Positions 7,941 through 52,324 of a stretch of DNA of 64,000 nt are shown piece by piece; positions within the stretch are counted from its first letter, which is position 1, and the number at the start of each line of letters is the position of its first letter. The position numbers and the translations under genes are program-made. The DNA is from Amphirosellinia nigrospora. Lineage: Eukaryota; Ascomycota; Sordariomycetes; Xylariales; Xylariaceae. The notes under the pieces are model-generated. The model searched no databases. It had not been told where the DNA came from and was given only the letters and a program-made list of their open reading frames with translations. The stretch spans positions 5,386,001 to 5,450,000 of the forward strand of contig SCHM01000001.1 in the NCBI GenBank assembly GCA_004123355.1. The letters are read 5' to 3'.

Positions 7941-9312
7941 ATGTTCCGCCACAGCGTCCGGCGGTTCGCGACGACGGCCGCGCGTAGAGCCGTTGCGCCT
8001 GCGGCTGCTCATGAGCCCAGCGCTCACACGCTCGCCGTCTCCAAGGCGCAGGGTATCGCGAAGGGGCTTACTGGAGGTATGTTGGACTGTACATCTCGAT
8101 TTGATCTGAAAACACTCCGTGTTCATGTACGCTATGACGCTACGTTTTCTATCTCAAGATTACTAAGACTAGCACTCTGCTCATGGTATTTGACTCACGA
8201 GTGCTCGTCCGAGCTGTGACGAATACACGATACTCTACGACATCCTTTTCATTTAATGAAAATAATCTCCCTAGTCATTTCATTCAGACATTCCCACTGA
8301 CACATCAAATCCCAGCCATCGGCAACACGCCTCTGATCAGACTGAACAAGCTCTCCTCGGAGACGGGGTGCAACGTCCTCGGCAAGGCCGAGTTCATGAA
8401 CCCGGGCGGATCCGTCAAGGACCGGGCGGCGCTCTACGTCGTCAAGGACGCCGAGGAGCGCGGGCTGCTGAAGCCGGGCGGCACCGTGGTGGAGGGGACG
8501 GCGGGCAACACGGGGATCGGGCTGGCGCACGTGTGCCGGTCGCGCGGGTACAAGCTAGTCATCTACATGCCGAACACGCAGTCGCAGGGCAAGATCGACC
8601 TGCTCCGCCTCCTCGGCGCCGAGGTGTACCCCGTGCCCGCCGTGGCCTTCGACAACCCGGACAACTACAACCACCAGGCCCGCCGGCACGCCGAGCGGCT
8701 GGACAACGCCGTGTGGACGAACCAGTTCGACAACACGGCGAACCGCCGCGCGCACATCGAGACGACGGGCCCCGAGATCTGGGCGCAGACGGCCGGCGAC
8801 GTCGACGCCTTCACGTGCGCCACGGGGACCGCCGGCACGCTGGCGGGCATCACGCGGTACCTGAAGGACGTGTCGGGCGGCCGGGTCAAGAGCTACCTCG
8901 CGGACCCGCCGGGGTCGGTGCTGCACTCGTACATCCAGTCCGGGGGCAAGCTGGCGGAGCGCAGCGGCGGCAGCATCACCGAGGGATAGGGCAGGGGCGG
9001 ATCACGGAGAACCTGGCGCCCGACATCGGGCTGCTGGACGGCAGCCTGCACATCTCGGACGAGAAGAGCATCGAGATGGTCTACCGCTGCCTCGACGAGG
9101 AGGGCGTCTATCTGGGCGCCAGCAGCGCGCTGAACGTCGTCGCTGCGAAGGAGGTCGCCGAGCTCCTGGGCCCGGGACACACCGTCGTCACGATGCTCTG
9201 CGATGGCGCGTATAGATATGCAGATCGCCTGTTCTCGAGGAAGTGGCTCGAGAGCAAGAATCTGCTGGGCGCCATCCCGAAACATCTAGAGAAGTATATC
9301 GTCTTGGCATAG
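7941..9312 (+). CDS. Cysteine synthase (O-acetylserine sulfhydrylase-like), probably mitochondrial
   Basis: Exons 7941-8076 and 8316-9312 with a 239-nt intron (GTATGT...CCCAG). The first exon encodes an Arg/Ala-rich presequence ([15 protein letters not shown]) typical of mitochondrial import. The body is a fold-type II PLP enzyme. [12 protein letters not shown] holds the PLP lysine, [14 protein letters not shown] binds substrate, and [11 protein letters not shown] is the PLP-phosphate loop. It matches the fungal branch of cysteine synthases that also contains yeast YGR012W. The expected reaction is O-acetylserine (or related substrate) plus sulfide to cysteine. One base is missing in the GGG run at 8983-8985: the upstream frame stops at once, while the -1 frame continues with [15 protein letters not shown], exactly the expected sequence. 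With one base added the length is 377 aa. The central exon is markedly GC-rich compared with its neighbours. Confidence 0.9.
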
Positions 9313-12970: not shown

Positions 12971-15748
12971 CTATGAGGTCACGGCGGGCTCCGTCTCCGA
13001 TCTTCGCGCTCCACTCTGATCCTGAGAACCCCGGGTTCTAGCTGAGGTAACACTGGCATATCTGTTCAGAGTATCCGGTCTATTGAGACCTGAGGCGTCC
13101 TCTGACTTAGCCTCGGATTTTGCCTTTGAGTACGCAGGTCCGACATGCAAGAGTCCAGTAATGATATTGTGTCGTTCTATACTGCGACTACGATCTCTTC
13201 GCATGCTCGGTGGTCGGCGGTCGGAAACAGACAAGGCGGATGCACGACGTTGTAGTCTGAGCTCGGCGTCCTCTGCCTCTTTACGGTTAAGATTCTCGCT
13301 TGGCAAGAGAACGGCTCTATCAAGCCCATAGGGTAGACCACGATGGCGCCCACGAATCATCATGGCAATAATGACGAGCTTTCCGAGAACAGAAAACTGC
13401 GCAACAAGCGAGGCATTTGTGCCAGGATACCCCAAACTCAGCCCAACGGTGCCGTAGGCACTGACAAGTTCAAAAAGTACGGCAAACATGGAAAAGTCCC
13501 CGGATATAAGGCGAGGACCTTCGGTAATGGCAAGAATGAAGTACCCAAGAAAGACATACCACAAATCGAATGATAGCTGGCGTCGCAAATGGGTTCCCAC
13601 ATAGGATATGCTGGGCTGGTCGTCATCTTCGTAGTCCTTCACGGCTTCGTACACGCCGAGAGATTTTTCCTCATACACGTTTGTCTTTCGGATCGAAATG
13701 GCTACAGGAAAGACAGAAATGTACATCATAATCAAGGAGGAAATCTGTACCGCTGGGTGGATTTCAGCGAGGTTGAGGCATGAAAACCCAGCAGTTCTGG
13801 TTGAGGCAGCTTGAAACCAGCCATCCAAAAACCGTATATTTAAGGGCAGTTCAGAAATCGGCCCGCGGCCCAACTATATACAGAGTCAGCGAAATCCAAG
13901 TCAAACAAGTATTAGATAGAAAACTTACGTCGAGAACAATAAATAATATCAAGTCAGTAGCATTAAGAGCAACAAGAATAAAGAAGAGCCACCAGTTGGC
14001 ATTCGAAGGGAAGAGCAATGTGAAACATCGTCGAGGGTGATCGAGAAGGAATCGAAGCTCTTCCCAAAGCCCCGAACCACGTGGGGCAACAAGTGAACCA
14101 ACCCATATCATAAAACGCAGTGCAACAGGAAACCCAGTATTCCCCAAGATGATGAGAAACGACATGACAAGCAGCGGGAACATAGCCGTATTGAAAGAGT
14201 TCATGCTGTCAGGGGTTAACGTAAACCCAAGATCCATGAATGCGGAATTGGATGTCCAAAAACCCCACCACACTGGATTGACGCCATCCGCCTTCACCAG
14301 CGAATTGTAGAAATCGTTGTTGTGCACAATCCACGGGACCAGGGTAATGATTCCGAATAAGCTGTAGCCCCAAAAATAGATGGTGAGAACCAATGCTAAA
14401 GTTTTCAGGGAACGGTATTCAATACCACCGAGCTCCTCTCTTTGTTCCTCGGTTAAATCGACGAATTGTGAGTTTCGGCCTATCGTCGGCTGCCAGCTCA
14501 GATATGGCATGGGATCTTCATCTTTACTTTGGGTCAAGACCGTTTTGATGCGGCGTAGCGGATTAACACGGTCTTGTGCTGTAGATGATGTGTCGCTTCG
14601 ATGAAACCTTTCTCCTTCCTTTCTCGGTTTTCGGAACCTAATGGCCCCAGCCACATGTGCGGCTGCTTCCACGTTATCTTCTAATTCTTGTGGTATGTTA
14701 TGGTGATCTTTTCTTGGCTTATCAGGCTCGGCGATGGTAATAGTTTGCTGCCGCTCCCCGTAAGGTAACGGCCGCTGTACCATTTGTGATCGCTCCACAC
14801 TTGATTCTCGTCGCTCATGCGGGATTTGTGGATCTTCGTCGACTCCATCGACTTCCTCTTCAAACTCCTCAGGCAGGGCTCCCATATCTGCATCTCGAGG
14901 CCCAGGAATCCTGAGTACACTTTTGTCGGCCTTACGTTGCTTCTCCAGGATAGCAATATGTTCGGCGTTGGACCTTCTCCCTGGTAAAGGAACCGGAGGA
15001 TCATCGTCGTCCTCTATGCGATCGCTTCTCCGCACTTCGTTTGCGAACTTGATCTGAGGAGGAGCCAATTGTGGCTCGTCATCTGAGCCCTTTTGCTCCG
15101 AACCGTCTTCCGACCCAGACGTATTAGCAAGCGGATCTAGTTTCGGCTCTCCGGTTATCGAGTATATGCGTCTAGTAGCATGCCGTCATTCGTGATTCGC
15201 GGAGACGTTCCCGCTCGCGTATAACATTGATACTTCGGCATTCAAGCCTCGCTCGGCGTTTTCCACATCGGGCTTGGCCTTTGAACGTGATTTACTAATG
15301 GTTACCCTCCGCGATCGTGCTTCTCGAACAATGTGCTGGAATCGTTTTTCGAACCAGTACAACCGAAGGAAGACCACAGAAGAGTGTATCGTAATGGGAT
15401 TTGATAGAAGCGCACAGAAGTACATGACAAGTTGCTGGAAGGTGTTAAGAAGGTTCAGGTCTACAGTGTTCAACCCAGCCTGAGTATTGGCACCCGCAGC
15501 AAAGGCCAGAGCATCGATGTAAGCCAGCTGGCCATGATCAGTGGCATACATAAGAATCGAGCCTACGATGGTCCATCCAATGATCCAGAAATCTACACAA
15601 TGGTCAGTTAGTTTCAGCCAGAAGTGGGAATGGAATTGGGGGATATCTTACAGTGGAGATTAATAAAGTTGAAGTGAGGATGTCTTGAGATGAAAGCAGG
15701 GCGAAGAGCCTGGGCCCACCTTGTAAGGTGCTCACGGGTATTCCCCAT
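12971..15748 (-). CDS. TRK-family high-affinity potassium transporter
   Basis: Exons (coding order) 15748-15652, 15592-13929, 13873-12971; introns of 59 and 55 nt with GTAAGA/GTAAGT donors; 886-887 codons. The protein has the Trk/HKT layout of four membrane-pore-membrane units. Visible selectivity-filter loops are GANTQAGLNTVDL, SNSAFMDLGFTLT, AASTRTAGFSCLNLA and SAYGTVGLSLGYP. A long acidic hydrophilic loop of roughly 200 residues sits between units 1 and 2, as in yeast Trk1. The C-terminus is Arg/Ser-rich and cytoplasmic. It imports K+ at the plasma membrane. One in-frame TGA occurs at 15186-15188, inside the hydrophilic loop. The neighbouring codons (HE, stop, RHATRR) suggest CGA changed to TGA, or a 54-nt intron. 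Everything else is intact, so I call it a gene rather than a pseudogene. Confidence 0.9.
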
Positions 15749-27852: not shown

Positions 27853-30800
27853 TTAATTCTGTTGCAGTAACGCCTGGAGTATAGCATTGACAAAGTCGGA
27901 TAGAGTGGCAACGATCTGGAGTGCAATTAGTAAAGTTTCGATTGGTATTGACAAGAAGCGAAGCAATAAGTGAACTTACCGGTGTCGCGTCACCAATCAA
28001 TTCCGTTGTCTGATCAACAAACGTAGCCGATAGTAAGGCCTTAGCGTTGTCTACAAGCGCCACGATACCCTTCACCGAATCGGGAGTGATGAGAGGCTTG
28101 ATCTGCTTGACGATGCCATCGATGTCGACATCATTGAGAGCTCCCAGGAGCGGCTTGATGCTCTTAATAAGACCGGACAAGTCGACCTCACTCAGCGTGT
28201 TGAGCAGAGGCTTGACTTGAGCCAAGAGACCTTTAGATCGATACCGCTGAGCTCACTGAGCAAAGGCTTAACCATCGCCAAGAGATCCTTGAGGTCAATC
28301 TGGCTGAGCTCGTCGAGCAAGGGCGATAGCTGGGCTATGAGACCTTTGAGATCGATATCGCCCAGGGCATCGACAAGTGGTACGGCGTCACCAATCAGAG
28401 TCTGCGTCTGGTTGACGAACCGGGCTGTTAATAACGACTCGGCGTTGTCGACAAGACCCACGATGCCGGAGACGGATTTGGGAGTTAATAGAGGCGATAC
28501 GGCTTCAAATGTGCCTTCGAGATCAAGCTTGCTGACCTCATCTAGGATAGGAGTGACCTTGTTAATTAAACCGGCCAAGTCTATCTTGCCTACGGCGTTC
28601 AAGATGGGCGAGAGCTGCTTCAGCAAGCTGTCGAAGTCAATAGAGCTGAGTTCTCCGAGGAGAGGCTCGATCATGCTGACGAGCTTGGTGAGGTCGATCT
28701 TGGACAACTCATCGAGTAGCGGTGCCACCTTGTCGATGAGTGCGGGTAAGTTGAGCTTCTTCAGCGATGTTATCAGAGGAACGGCGCCGCCGATAAGGGT
28801 CTGGGTCTCGTCTACGAAGTTCTTGGTCAGGAGTGCCTCCGCGTTTCCAAGAAGACCGACCAGGCCCTTTACGGAGTCCTCAGACAATAACGGCTTGACT
28901 GCGTCAAGTAAAGCAGGGAGGTCCAGCTTGCCAAGTTCGCTAAGGAGAGGCATGATCTGCTTTACTAAATCTTGAAGATCTAACTCGCCTAAACTCTTAA
29001 GTAGTGGCGCGGGCGCCAGAAATAAGGTCTGAGTCTGATCAACGAATTGACCAGTTAACACTTCTCTGCGTTTCCAAGAAGACCGACAAGCCTTTACGGA
29101 GTCCTCGGACAGTAACGGCTTGACTGCGTCAAGTAAGGCAGGGAGATCCAGCTTGCCAAGTTCGCTAAGGAGAGGCATGATCTGCTTCACTAAATCTTGA
29201 AGATCTAATTCGCCTAAACTCTTTAGTAGTGGCGCGGCGCCAGAAATAAGGTCTTGAGTTTGATCAACGAATTGACCAGTCAACAACTTCTCCGCATTTC
29301 CAAGAAGACCAACTAGGCCCTTCACGGACTCCTCGGACAACAGTGGCTTAACTGCGTCTAGCAAAGCAGGGAGATCAAGTTTACCAAGCTCGCTAAGCAG
29401 CGGCATAATCTGCTTAACTAGATCCTGAAGATCTAATTCGCCTAGACTCTTGAGGAGCGGAGCGGCGCCAGAAATGAGGTCTTGGGTCTGATCAACGAAT
29501 TGACCGGTTAATAGCTTCTCGGCATTTCCAAGGAGGCCAACTAGACCCTTGATAGACTGTTCCGATAACAAGGGCTGTACGGCTTGGTACAGACCCGCTA
29601 GGTCAAGCTTGCCGAGCTCACTGAGGAGTGGCATAATCTGCTTGACTAGATCTTGAAGATCTAGCTCGCCCAGACTCTTCAGAAGGGGCGCGGCGCCAGA
29701 GATAAGGTCTTGGGTCTGGTCCACAAACTGACCGGTGAGCAGCTTCTCAGCATTACCAAGTAGGCCGAGCAAGCCCTTAATAGACTGTTCTGTCAACAAG
29801 GGCTGGAGAGCATTGAATAGGCCTTCCAAGTCGAGTTTGCCGAGCTCATTCAGCAAAGGCTTAACCTGGTTAATCAAGCTTTCCAGATCTAGACCCTCGA
29901 GACTCTTCACAAGGGGTCCAGCACCCGAGATTAGGCCCTTAGTCTGGTCAACGAATTGGCTGGTAAGCAGGTTTTCGGCATTGCCAAGTAGGCCGACCAG
30001 ACCCTTGATAGATTGCTCTGTTAATAGGGCTGGAGAGCATTGAAGAGGCCTGTCAGGTCAAGTTTTCCAACTTCGGTTAGAATTGGCTTAACCTGGTCAA
30101 TCAGACCGGCCAAATCTAGGTCGCTGAGGCTCTTAATAAGAGGCCCAGCACCTGAGATCAAGCCCTTGGTCTGGTCGACGAATTGGCCGGTAAGGAGGTT
30201 CTCGGCATTGCCAAGCAATCCTACCAACCCCTTGATGGAGTCCTCTGTCAATAGTGGTTTGAGTGCGCTGAAAAGACCGTCCAGATCAAGCTTGCCGACT
30301 TCGTCAAGGATCGGCTTGAGTTGCTTGACCAGGCCTGCGAGGTCGATTTGCCCAAGTTTGAATGAGTGGCCCGGCGCCAGAAATCAGGCCCTTGGTTTCC
30401 TTCACGAAATCGGCAGTCAGAAGGCTTTCAGCGTTGGCTAATAAGAGTACGAGGCCGTGGATAGTGGAAGGTGTAAGCAATGGCTCGACAGCATCTAATA
30501 AGCCTTGGATATCGACCTTGCCAAGAGTTTCGAGAATTGGCTCAGCGGTCGTCAATAGCGTCTTCAGCGCATTGACGGTATTGTTATTCAAAGCTCTTCC
30601 GCGTTGCCAAGTAGAGAGACGATACCACTGATGGACTTGGGTTGAAGGAGAGGGTTTAGGGCGTCGAGAAGTCCCTTCAGATCAAGATCTTCCAAGGTGT
30701 CAATGAGCGGCTGAGCACCCTTGAGCAACGACTTCAGGTCGGTGACAGTGTCCTTAGTCAACAAGCTTCCAGCGTTGTTTAGTAATGTGACGAGACTCTG

Positions 30801-31522
30801 AATTGTTTCAGGCGTCAGGAGTGGCTTCAGTGCCGCTACTATTCCCTTAATGTCGATGTCGTTGATTTCATCAAGAAGGTCTTCGAGCGGTAGTTTGCCG
30901 AGAAGATCAACCAAGGGGCCTGCCTTCATAAGAAGGTTCCTGACAAGATCGGGAGTAGGCGGCCGAAGTGTCTGGGCTAGATATGTGAGAGAATCGTGCA
31001 CAGACACCAAAAAGTCGGGTGTTAATAGTTTTGAGAGAGCCTGGACGAGGGCTCCAAGTTGGCCCAAATCCTCGGCGATCGTCTTTAACCCATCGATCAG
31101 GTCGCCCAGATCACCGAGCCCTGGGATTATGTCACCAAGATCTCCTGTATTGAGGAGTCCGCCGGTTGAACCTGAGCCAGACCCTGATCCTGATCCCGAC
31201 CCTGATCCCGATCCCGATCCTGAGCCTGAGCCTGAGTTGGATCCCGAATCCGACCCCGAACCCGTCTCGTTTGTGTTATGTTGCCGGGATATAATGGAGC
31301 TCTGAATTGTTGTGCCTGGCTCTTCCTGAGAAGACTGTTCAGCTCCGTCAAGGCATCCGTAAGTTCTGACCGGGGCACTATAGCGAGATTATGCTTTGCC
31401 AGCAGGGCGTCTAGTGCTGCGGGGTCCAAACCGAGCTCTGCTGTTGAGGCTGTTGGAGCCGCGTTCTCTGCAAACAGTCTGGCCGGAGCCAGAGCTGCCA
31501 CTAAGAGGGTTGAGAAACGCAT
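27853..31522 (-). CDS. Large secreted protein of tandem 76-residue Leu/Asp-rich repeats
   Basis: The start at 31522 gives a clear signal peptide (RFSTLLVAALAPARLFA). A short region follows, then a Ser-Gly repeat linker, then a ~900-residue array of leucine-rich helical repeats. The period is 76 residues, with a ~21-residue sub-motif (LLSELGKLDLPALLDAVKPL and LLKSLGELDLQDLVKQIMPL) and a variable connector (GLVGLLGNAEKLLTGQFVDQ). The final exon follows a 64-nt intron (27979-27916) and ends at TAA 27853-27855. About ten frame breaks occur: near 31265, at 30590-30592, two at 30350-30365, at 30027-30029, a cluster at 29030-29095, and at 28230-28231. At most of them one missing base restores the repeat pattern exactly. 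I recognise no named domain. A cell-wall, biofilm-like or surface structural role is only a guess. Confidence 0.82.
28830..30620 (-). repeat. Coding tandem repeat array, 228-bp period
   Basis: About eight to nine units of ~228 bp. The conserved GNAE-coding block recurs near 28851, 29069, 29297, 29525, 29754, 29982, 30210 and 30438. Units between 28840 and 29700 are nearly identical in protein, pointing to recent duplication or gene conversion; outer units are more diverged. Confidence 0.9.
31165..31265 (-). repeat. Hexanucleotide repeat coding for a Ser-Gly linker
   Basis: Degenerate GATCCC/GACCCT units read on the minus strand as about a dozen Ser-Gly (and Ser-Asp/Asn) dipeptides. They form a flexible linker between the signal-peptide region and the repeat array. 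Confidence 0.9.
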
Positions 31523-34256: not shown

Positions 34257-35679
34257 ATGGCGTCCAAATTCCAGGAGCACTCTCATTTCGAATTTGAGGA
34301 CAGCAGCCCTCCAGCTTCGGTTCATGGCGCCAGAGGTGATGCAGGAGCAGACCCGTCCAACGCTCCGGGGAGAAACAGCGACGAGTCATCTGTTGACCAT
34401 GTCCAGGAGAAGGTCCCGGCAGCAGTTCCGTTGACGAAGTGGCAGAAGGTCAAGCGGCATTTTGGGCGATTCAAGTGGTGGTATCTAGGTGTTGGCCTTA
34501 TCCTCCTCATTATCTTGTTGCCGTTGTTGTAAGTGCTTCTAGAGTTGATGAAATACATTGCCAAATTAACTAACTCAACCCAGATTTACTAAAATCATCC
34601 CGGCCATCACGCAGGACATAGTGAATAATCAACAACTCCCTATTATCGGGGGTACATTCCAAGCGCTCTCGCCAACAGAACTCTCGGTGACACTGCATAC
34701 CCAGCTCGATACGCCGCTGGCAGCAGACATCGATCCCGCAACTCTGTTCGTGTACAACAAAGATACCCCGGAGTATTCGCCCTTCATCAACATCACTTTG
34801 CCAAAGATTCATGCGGATCACAAGACCCCAGTCATGGTTACAAACCAGACCGTCAAAGTTATCAACGAAACCGAACTTGTTAAGTGGTTTGGTCAGGTCT
34901 TTGACCAACCCAAAGCGGAACTATCTGTCAAAGGTAAAGCAACAGTTCGGTTGGGGGCGCTGAAGATGAATGCGAATATCGCCAAAACCATCGAAGCAGG
35001 GGCTCTCAATCATCTAGAGGGCTTCGGTATCACAAGCCTACGATTAATATATCCTGCTCTGGACGATGGCACCAACGTTAGGGGAACACTAAATTTACCC
35101 AATGCAGGTGTGCTAACCCTTGGACTGGGCAACCTCACCCTTAATCTGTTCTCCGGCGATATCAATCTTGGTTTCGTCAACGTATACGATGTGATTTTGC
35201 CTCCAGGAAACAACACACGAGATTTTGATGGCCAATTGTACCTGAACGAGCTTGTCCCCAACCTAGGTGCAATTTTGGACAGCCAATCTGGTGCCCTAGC
35301 AGATGGCAATATCGAACTGAAAGCTCGGGGCAACTCCACTATGGTCAATGGGGTACACATTGGCTACGTGGAACAGGTCCTAAACAACAAGACCTTAGTG
35401 TCGACTGTGCCGGTCATCAAACTGATAAGCGATGTTATTAGCAGCTTCTCTGCCAGTGGCAATGCTTCTCTCAGCGACTTGCTAGGCGATACGGTTGGTA
35501 ACTCGACATTCATCGAGGGGCTTTTGGACCACTGGAACTCGACGATGAGCACGAACAGCACTGGATCGACGCTGAAGAAGATTGGGCGCTCGAGCCCGTA
35601 TGGATCACGTACCATAAAGGCGCCGGCGACGAAGAACTTGCTGAAGATGGGCCTAAAGATGGCGTTGGCAAAGCTCTAA
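34257..35679 (+). CDS. Membrane-anchored DUF3712 protein
   Basis: Exons 34257-34528 and 34584-35679 (55-nt intron, GTAAGT...CTCAACCCAG). The first ~70 residues are acidic and cytosolic, followed by one strong transmembrane helix (WWYLGVGLILLIILLPLL, ~74-91). The large remainder is extracytoplasmic. It has the LEA-like beta repeats of fungal DUF3712 proteins (QLPIIGGTFQALSPTELSVT; later FSGDINLGFVNVYDVILPPG) and many N-glycosylation sites. Type II topology is likely. The family's function is not established; its LEA-like fold is also seen in lipid-binding proteins. The frame is intact, and the C-terminal tail is basic. Confidence 0.88.
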
Positions 35680-50183: not shown

Positions 50184-50869
50184 GGAGATTTGAGTCGTAG
50201 GGTTATAAAATGAACAAATGTTGGGAAGAATGTGGATCACGTTTAGAAAATATCATACACAACCCTCCGAGAGCATGAGATGGAGCTTATCACAATAGCA
50301 AAACATTAGACTCAGCTAGGCGTGTTAATGCCGCCAGGTTATTCACACAGTCATGAAAGACGAGAGATCAATTTCAAGTCAGGTTCCAAACGTCATCGTT
50401 CGCATTAAGCGCTCGCAGGCGAGTCTCCTAGTACTAGCTAGAGTTACACTACCCCCTCCTTCGCTTTCAGATTCATTTCGTGCCATGTGTTTCATATTCC
50501 ACGGTGCCAAGTCATTTCAGACACTACACCGCCACCCAACCAGAAATCCAGAGGTCCTAGGCCAAGGCCTCGGTAAGCCCAACGAGGACGCCATGAACGC
50601 CGTTTCCGAGTATGGTGATGCCCCCTACCAACCGATGATCAGACATAAAAGAAAAAAAACTGCTATAGAAACCACCGCCGGATGCTCGCCATGCCTCTTG
50701 GTCTATGGTCTAATGCCATGAAAAATTTGGAGGCCAACAAAACTTCGTCTTAGACAAAGTTTAATATACATAGTGAGGCAGGTGCGATGCTATTATAAGA
50801 GAACAAAGAAGGGGTATCATGAGAAGGTAGTGAGAAGCCTCACTTTGAAGCAGACAACAAGAGAGTCGC
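50184..50869. other. Intergenic region between convergent SRP9 and RNR2
   Basis: About 690 bp. A 122-codon open frame (50353-50721, +) shows no family resemblance and is not called. Confidence 0.55.
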
Positions 50870-52324
50870 TTAGAAGTCGTCATCGAAAGTGAAGTCTCCG
50901 CCGTTCTCACCCTGGCTCTCAGTAGGCTCCGAAGCAGCCTCGGTAGAGACGTTCTTCTTAGTGCTGGCCATAACACCGGCCTTCTGGTACTCGCCGACGC
51001 GCTTCTCGAAGAAGTTGGTCTTGCCACCGAGCGAGATGTTCTCCATGAAGTCGAAGGGTTGGTAGCGCGGTAGACCTTGTCATTGCCTAGGGCGACAAGC
51101 AGACGGTCAGCCACGAACTCGATGTACTGCTTCATGAGGGTAGCGTTCATGCCAAGCAGGCCGCAAGGTAGGGCCTCTGTGAGGAATTCCTGCTCGATCC
51201 TGACAGCATCGACAATGACTGCTTCCACAACCTCTTTGCTGGGTCGGTTCTTCAAGTGAGAGAATAACAAGCAAGCAAAGTCAGTGTGAAGGCCCTCGTC
51301 ACGAGAGATGAGCTCATTAGAGAAGGTCAGGCCGGGCATGAGACCACGCTTCTTGAGCCAGAAGATGGAGGCAAAAGCACCACTGAAGAAGATGCCCTCG
51401 ACCGCCGCGAAGGCGATCAAACGCTGAGCGAAAGTAGAGTTACGGTCAGTAATCCACTTCAGGGCCCAGTCGGCCTTCTTGCGAATAGCAGGGACTAGAG
51501 ATAAGGTTAGCCTCGGCCTTAGCAAGGAAAACTCAATTGGGTCAACATACTTGTGTCAATAGCATTGAAGAGATGGGTGCGCTGAGAGGGCTCCTTGATG
51601 TAGGTATCAATGAGCAGAGAGTATGTCTCGGAATGGATATTCTCATCATAATCTGGAAGCCGTAGAAGCATCGAGCTTCGGGAATCTGAACCTCGCCGCT
51701 GAAACGCTCAACCAAGTTCTCGTTGACAATTCCGTCGGAGGCAGCAAAGAAGGCCAAGATATGCGAAATGAAGTATTTCTCATCCTCATTGATTCTGTTG
51801 TTCCAGTCGTGCAGATCCTTGGACAGATCAATCTCCTCGGCAGTCCAGAAAGAGGCTTCGGCTTTCTTGTACATTTGCCAGATCTATATGACAAAGTGGA
51901 TCGTTAGCCCCATGTCGCGTCAAAACCCACTTAACGCGTAAAGGACGCGTCACTCACCTCATGATATTTAATTGGGAATAAGACGAATCGCTGGGGTTCT
52001 CTTGTAGGAGGGCTCATCGGCCTCTTCAGGTTTGATACCAGAAGCAACGGCGGGCTTGGGTCCTTCCTTAGGCTTCTCTGGTGTTGTGATTGTGGTGTTG
52101 TTGGTATCGATCTGGTTGGCGAGAGTGTGGACATCGGCGTCGAAATGCGCGTTCTCCTTGCCAGAAGCGGCGAAATCTAGTTTCTTGACTGGGGATTCCA
52201 TCTTGAAAGACTCAATTGCAGAGGCAGCCTGTGAGAACAGCACGTTAGCCTCGAGGACATACAAAGAGATACTCGAGGGGGCGACGTTATGTACCTTCTT
52301 GGAGGGAGTGATCTCAGTTGCCAT
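50870..52324 (-). CDS. RNR2: Ribonucleotide reductase small subunit (R2)
   Basis: Exons in coding order: 52324-52295, 52228-51958, 51883-51551, 51494-50870 (introns 66, 74 and 56 nt). The R2 subunit carries the di-iron/tyrosyl-radical cofactor that makes dNTPs with the R1 subunit. Visible parts are [68 protein letters not shown] (iron ligand Glu), and the radical-Tyr region in the SETYSLLI context. The C-terminal FTFDDDF peptide docks onto R1. Four single-base losses break the frame: near 52001, 51993-51996, 51644 and 51056-51058. With four bases added the length is 420 aa, the usual size. R2 is normally essential, so errors in the sequence are likelier than loss. Confidence 0.94.

What the first reader, a model, noticed from the sequence alone, without database searches (positions are those of the whole stretch)
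27853..31522. Unfamiliar secreted protein made of 76-residue Leu/Asp tandem repeats
A signal peptide, a Ser-Gly linker and a ~900-residue array with a 228-bp DNA period, itself built from ~21-residue amphipathic units (LxxLxxLDLxxLxxxxxPLL). I know no named domain with this pattern. Central units are almost identical, so the array is expanding or homogenising and is probably length-variable between strains. Secretion plus a rigid helical solenoid suggests a surface or extracellular scaffold, possibly an adhesin-like or effector role. This is the best candidate here for an undescribed protein class.
Basis: partly seen in the sequence, partly recalled or inferred. Interest (0 to 1): 0.75.

Follow-up and report, generated by a model that had tools for sequence, protein, structure and literature searches.

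The report
Fungal secreted protein of 19-residue repeats
A fungal gene encodes a probably secreted, leucine-rich protein built almost wholly from about fifty copies of a 19-residue helix-like unit that matches no family checked here; selection has kept many units alike as protein while their DNA drifted far apart, and what the protein does is still a guess.

Summary
The array is real. The gene lies on the minus strand (ATG 31522, TAA 27855-27853) of a 48-Mb fungal genome, probably Xylariales (recalled ITS features). A hydrophobic leader and a Ser-Gly linker precede about 966 residues on a 57-bp/19-aa grid. The 76-aa unit is only the central arrangement of four blocks (B1-B2-A-A, seven times); near the N-terminus one A block, and near the C-terminus five, separate the B pairs. 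No convincing Pfam, PDB-sequence or NCBIfam match; no paralogue found in its own genome; no bacterial, archaeal or viral relative found. Fungal genomes could not be searched.

One recent duplicate pair exists. The frame breaks about nine times; two enzyme genes nearby break too, so assembly error is likelier than decay, but unproven.

Both AlphaFold models were low-confidence (pLDDT 36 and 60), mostly helical. Best explanation: a secreted, acidic, cysteine-free amphipathic helical-repeat protein acting as a structural or surface-active coat component. Solenoid and effector roles remain untested.

The parts
27853..31522 (-). whole gene, ATG to TAA, frame interrupted in this assembly
31469..31522 (-). 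putative signal peptide (MRFSTLLVAALAPARLFA, end approximate)
   Evidence: read by eye; no signal-peptide predictor available
31263..31468 (-). short region between leader and linker; one sequon (NIT) near its end, where the frame may already be wrong; no second copy found in the genome
31167..31262 (-). Ser-Gly linker, largely on a 6/18-bp tandem repeat; in another frame than the leader
30882..31166 (-). Leu/Asp-rich N-terminal part where the 19-residue profile finds no block
   Evidence: one search scanned it from 31067
30484..30881 (-). N-terminal blocks: B pairs separated by one A block
28894..30483 (-). central array, seven 76-aa units (B1-B2-A-A), several with frame breaks
27980..28893 (-). 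C-terminal array: B pairs separated by five A blocks
27916..27979 (-). probable 64-bp intron (GTAAGT...ACTAAT...CAG)
27856..27915 (-). last exon, IVATLSDFVNAILQALLQQN; no obvious GPI signal
   Evidence: absence of GPI signal judged by eye

Best explanation
A single-copy fungal gene for a probably secreted, non-enzymatic structural protein. Shown: an array of 19-residue blocks with Leu/Ile/Val at fixed positions, 24% Leu, no Cys in the clean pieces, net negative charge, purifying selection on the protein. Inferred: each block forms one amphipathic helix of about 16-18 residues (Asp10 as N-cap, Pro1 on the polar side), successive helices fold back on one another, and the chain makes a long helical rod or an amphipathic film on the hyphal surface or in the extracellular matrix, where repeat number sets length or avidity. 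The frame breaks are most likely assembly errors.
For: 19-residue grid; A, B1 and B2 share hydrophobic positions 2, 3, 14, 15 and 18, and register 0 is best of 19 rotations for A-B1 and B1-B2; mean helical moment 0.275 against 0.191 (sd 0.011) in 50 shuffles of one long piece that includes a short out-of-frame stretch; both models mostly helix; leader read by eye; pN/pS 0.02-0.49 over 21 unit pairs in the coding frame, while four central starts compared in the two other frames gave 0.77-1.92 and 2.4-7.0, one pair undefined; RNR small subunit and a PALP enzyme in the window are also frameshifted.
Against: Models have pLDDT 36.0 and 59.5, pTM 0.18 and 0.22: no tertiary fold is shown, and a solenoid of near-ideal repeats might have been expected to model better. 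The second model runs one helix from residue 5 to 46, over two block borders, which one helix per block does not predict. A-B2 register 0 ranks only second of 19 rotations. Secretion rests on reading by eye. Frame breaks are denser here than in XPB (732 codons), GT90 (689) and TruD (682), which are open. No expression or localisation data.
Confidence: 0.5

Rival explanations
1. A recent pseudogene: the frame breaks are real, and the purifying selection seen between units is a record of the past. (This and the next reading do not exclude the best explanation in every part, so the odds need not add to one.)
For: About nine frame changes in 3.6 kb; XPB, GT90 and TruD in the same window are open over 732, 689 and 682 codons. 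One place needs a gain as well as three losses of bases against its nearest copy.
Against: Two conserved enzymes in the same window are frameshifted as well. All five departures of block spacing from the 57-bp grid are net losses of 1-3 bases, as expected of long-read errors left unpolished in repeats (inference). pN/pS between units stays below 0.5.
Confidence: 0.2
2. An extracellular surfactant or lipid carrier: flexible amphipathic helices that spread at interfaces (working like latherin or exchangeable apolipoproteins, recalled) rather than a folded solenoid.
For: 24% Leu, few aromatic residues, no Cys, Pro-punctuated amphipathic units, strong negative charge; failure to obtain a confident fold.
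Against: No apolipoprotein or BPI-type model among the Pfam matches. Low model confidence may simply reflect a shallow alignment.
Confidence: 0.25
3. A host-directed repeat effector or adhesin.
For: Secreted repeat proteins occur among effectors of plant-associated organisms (PMC4617103, passages seen).
Against: Conservation of units rather than diversification; no known effector or adhesin domain in the Pfam scans; organism lifestyle unknown. No obvious GPI anchor (by eye).
Confidence: 0.12

Closest known systems
Alpha-solenoid repeat proteins (HEAT, TPR, Sel1, TAL)
   Same: Two 19-residue helix-like blocks make 38 residues, near the size of a two-helix repeat (34 for TAL and 31-36 for PPR in PMC11514114, passages seen; other sizes recalled).
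   Different: No Pfam match to any of them except HEAT_EZ at E 2.9; probably secreted; no confident fold.
Ustilago Rep1 and Hum3 secreted amphipathic repeat proteins (PMC4617103, passages seen)
   Same: Fungal, secreted, amphipathic tandem repeats; Rep1 is listed as a hyphal cell-wall repellent protein.
   Different: Those repeats are mostly separated by Kex2 sites; the clean array pieces here hold one dibasic pair (KK) and no KR or RR (the leader region has one RK and one RR).
Polyubiquitin genes (evolutionary pattern only; PMC10457151, passages seen)
   Same: Tandem protein units conserved while synonymous sites diverge, with occasional recent duplicates.
   Different: Unrelated protein; here units also differ in arrangement and many differ in sequence, and no related species was compared.
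LIN52 (PF10044)
   Same: One stretch scored 23.2 bits against a cut-off of 22.
   Different: The unit 28267-28494, which covers nearly the same residues, gives no LIN52 hit at E 1 on its own, nor do the other 9 rows: taken as a chance hit.

Membership tests
HEAT/TPR/Sel1-type alpha-solenoid | significant match to the family profile | tested here: not met
   Pfam; only HEAT_EZ at E 2.9, 9 bits against a cut-off of 27
HEAT/TPR/Sel1-type alpha-solenoid | stacked antiparallel helix pairs | tested here: inconclusive
   models pLDDT 36.0 and 59.5
Kex2-processed repeat peptides (Rep1, Hum3 type) | dibasic cleavage site between repeats | tested here: not met
   one KK, no KR or RR, in the clean array pieces
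HsbA / cell wall galactomannoprotein | match to its Pfam model | tested here: not met
   not among matches up to E 10, (HMMER filters may drop weak ones)
Exchangeable apolipoprotein | match to its Pfam model | tested here: not met
   not among matches up to E 10, (same caution)
Exchangeable apolipoprotein | binds lipid or interfaces | not testable with these tools
   needs protein
LIN52 | profile match carried by the matching unit alone | tested here: not met
   23.2 bits on the long piece, none at E 1 on unit 28267-28494
Secreted fungal protein | cleavable signal peptide | tested here: inconclusive
   hydrophobic leader by eye; no predictor

The most novel reading that the evidence does not exclude
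The first seen member of a class of secreted helical proteins built from a 19-residue helix, in which selection holds the protein units alike while their DNA is kept apart (53-83% identical between the 7 whole units compared), perhaps because tandem copies above roughly 80% identity would be hit by repeat-induced point mutation or lost by recombination (threshold recalled; one recent pair at 109 of 114 bases lies above it).
Probability: 0.12. Interest if true: 0.65.

Novelty: new variant of a known kind. Interest (0 to 1): 0.4.

Why it matters
If the class is real, it adds a secreted fungal scaffold or surface protein with a simple, regular 19-residue building block and no match in the family libraries checked, and a clear case in which tandem repeats persist by selection on the protein rather than by DNA homogenisation. 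If not, it is still a useful example of how repeat genes break in an assembly.

Tried and rejected
Recent homogenisation: rejected for most units; accepted for one pair, the A-A blocks at 29232 and 29007, 5 DNA differences in 114 bases and none in protein. LIN52: rejected. Other weak Pfam matches set aside as chance, all below their cut-offs: Cullin_Nedd8 E 2.2e-4, Anticodon_2 E 0.0024 and weaker ones on the long piece, DUF7169 E 0.0075 on the leader piece (partly out of frame); USH1C_N E 0.012 and CRR7 E 0.17, each on one of 10 unit rows (which prints no cut-offs). Kex2-processed peptides: rejected. TrkH as a third frameshifted gene: I first read it so, then found a 55-bp GT-AG gap and dropped it; the sugar transporter is left undecided. 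Bacterial, archaeal and viral relatives: 19 and 25 pattern matches, none confirmed. Literature: five searches aimed at this kind of repeat listed no title that describes it; only listings were seen, and passages of two listed papers. Two more searches looked for the organism's assembly (not found) and one for polyubiquitin. Fold search was not run because the models are low-confidence. The rule used to class blocks put one B2-like block among the 26 A blocks.

Full report
Where and what. The window lies in a genome of 48.1 Mb in 11 contigs. It is fungal by inference: introns, 5.8S rRNA, and an XPB helicase whose best PDB match is RAD25. Its rDNA spacer looks to me like that of Xylariales; this is recalled and was not checked against a database. 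The gene is on the minus strand from ATG 31522 to TAA 27855-27853, at the coordinates given.

Anatomy. The leader MRFSTLLVAALAPARLFA is followed by a short region, a Ser-Gly linker largely on a 6/18-bp repeat, a Leu/Asp-rich stretch without clear blocks, then the array. A 64-bp interval with GTAAGT, a branch-like ACTAAT and CAG fits a terminal intron; after it come 20 residues, IVATLSDFVNAILQALLQQN, and the stop.

The repeat. The unit is 19 residues (57 bp). A profile scan of five pieces, one of them in a wrong frame by my mistake, found 35 blocks against a mean of 0.8 and a maximum of 4 in 200 residue shuffles; the profile was trained on the same blocks. With the frame corrected, 46 blocks were read, each in a single frame; five further places on the grid are broken by frame changes, which makes 51 over about 966 residues (and my count). 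Three types occur: A (consensus PLLDELGKLDLKGLLKAVK), B1 (PLLTEDSIKGLVGLLGNAE) and B2 (KLLTGQFVDQTQGLISGAG). The sorting rule gave 26, 11 and 9, but one of the 26 A blocks is B2-like. The 76-aa unit is B1-B2-A-A, seven times in the centre. Near the N-terminus B pairs are separated by one A (twice), near the C-terminus by five (twice). Register 0 scored best of 19 rotations for A-B1 and B1-B2 and second for A-B2, so common descent of B2 with A is less sure.

Evolution. For seven whole 76-aa units (21 pairs) protein identity is 50-97% and DNA identity 53-83%; pS is 0.58-0.91 and pN/pS 0.02-0.49. Random codon choice for one unit gives a mean pS of 0.83 (5-95%: 0.72-0.95). The most alike pair, 29574 and 29346, is 97% identical in protein with pS 0.64. 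In the two other frames, pairs of four central starts gave pN/pS 0.77-1.92 and 2.4-7.0, one pair undefined. The units compared are therefore mostly old and kept by selection. An exception is the A-A pair at 29232 and 29007: 5 DNA differences in 114 bases. The pattern resembles polyubiquitin, where birth-and-death and slow concerted evolution are still argued (PMC10457151, passages); the authors of that paper favour concerted evolution, and without related species I cannot exclude a slow form of it here.

Frame breaks. One frame change lies between leader and linker. In the array block spacing departs from the grid at five places, by -1, -2, -1, -3 and -1 bases. At the -3 place the stretch leaves and regains the frame twice; against its nearest copy it shows three losses and one gain, and against a more distant copy three losses and three gains. 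That makes about nine changes in all (and my count). In the same window the ribonucleotide reductase small subunit leaves its frame after KVYRATNP, where the PDB match ends, and another frame goes on with [16 protein letters not shown] (that this is the normal continuation is recalled). A PALP-family enzyme changes frame after GGSITEG. TrkH, which looked alike, has a 55-bp GT-AG gap and is more likely an intron. XPB (732 codons), GT90 (689) and TruD (682) are open. I judge assembly error likelier than decay; without reads it is not proven.

Relatives. No convincing Pfam match on 4 pieces or on 10 unit rows; LIN52 at 23.2 bits (cut-off 22) is not reproduced by the nearly matching unit alone; the other matches lie below their cut-offs. 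PDB sequence searches gave nothing better than E 0.11 for one piece and 0.078 for the alignment. NCBIfam: none on 2 pieces. In its own genome, matches of three pieces at E up to 0.001, 1 and 10 (7, 11 and 17 rows) lie in this gene but for two rows at E 0.32 and 0.34 (only the best candidates are scored there); the leader piece matches only itself. GTDB genomes and IMG/VR: 19 and 25 pattern matches, none confirmed. No fungal collection is held, so absence of relatives says nothing about other fungi.

Structure. Two predictions were made with alignments of the window's own repeats only: 266 aa, pLDDT 36.0, pTM 0.18; 114 aa, pLDDT 59.5, pTM 0.22. Both are mostly helix. The second has breaks near the LD and GKL turns, which agrees with a helix starting at Asp10, but also one helix over residues 5-46, which does not. 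No fold is shown. Clean pieces: 24.1% Leu, no Cys, net charge -62 over 1,055 residues including the linker. Helical moment of one long piece: 0.275 against 0.191 (sd 0.011) in 50 shuffles.

Function. The most likely role is a secreted structural or surface-active protein; whether rod or film is open. No Kex2-type sites separate the repeats, unlike Rep1 and Hum3 of Ustilago (PMC4617103, passages). Effector or adhesin roles have no direct evidence.

Noticed in passing
50761-51525 minus: Ribonucleotide reductase small subunit loses its frame near the C-terminus and seems to go on in another frame; suggests indel errors in this assembly.
   Followed up: yes
8183-9312 plus: PALP-family enzyme split over two overlapping frames without room for an intron.
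   Followed up: yes
12971-15068 minus: TrkH-type cation transporter, two ORFs joined by a probable 55-bp intron.
   Followed up: partly
34257-35679 plus: Two neighbouring ORFs, one ending in a hydrophobic stretch and one with a DUF3712 domain, about 2.7 kb from the repeat gene's start and on the other strand.
   Followed up: no
31167-31235: Ser-Gly linker is itself a 6/18-bp tandem repeat and may vary in length.
   Followed up: no
L027 (contig C10): Three 5.8S rRNA matches on contig C10 (39 of 1190 candidates scored); the spacer looks like Xylariales (recalled).
   Followed up: partly
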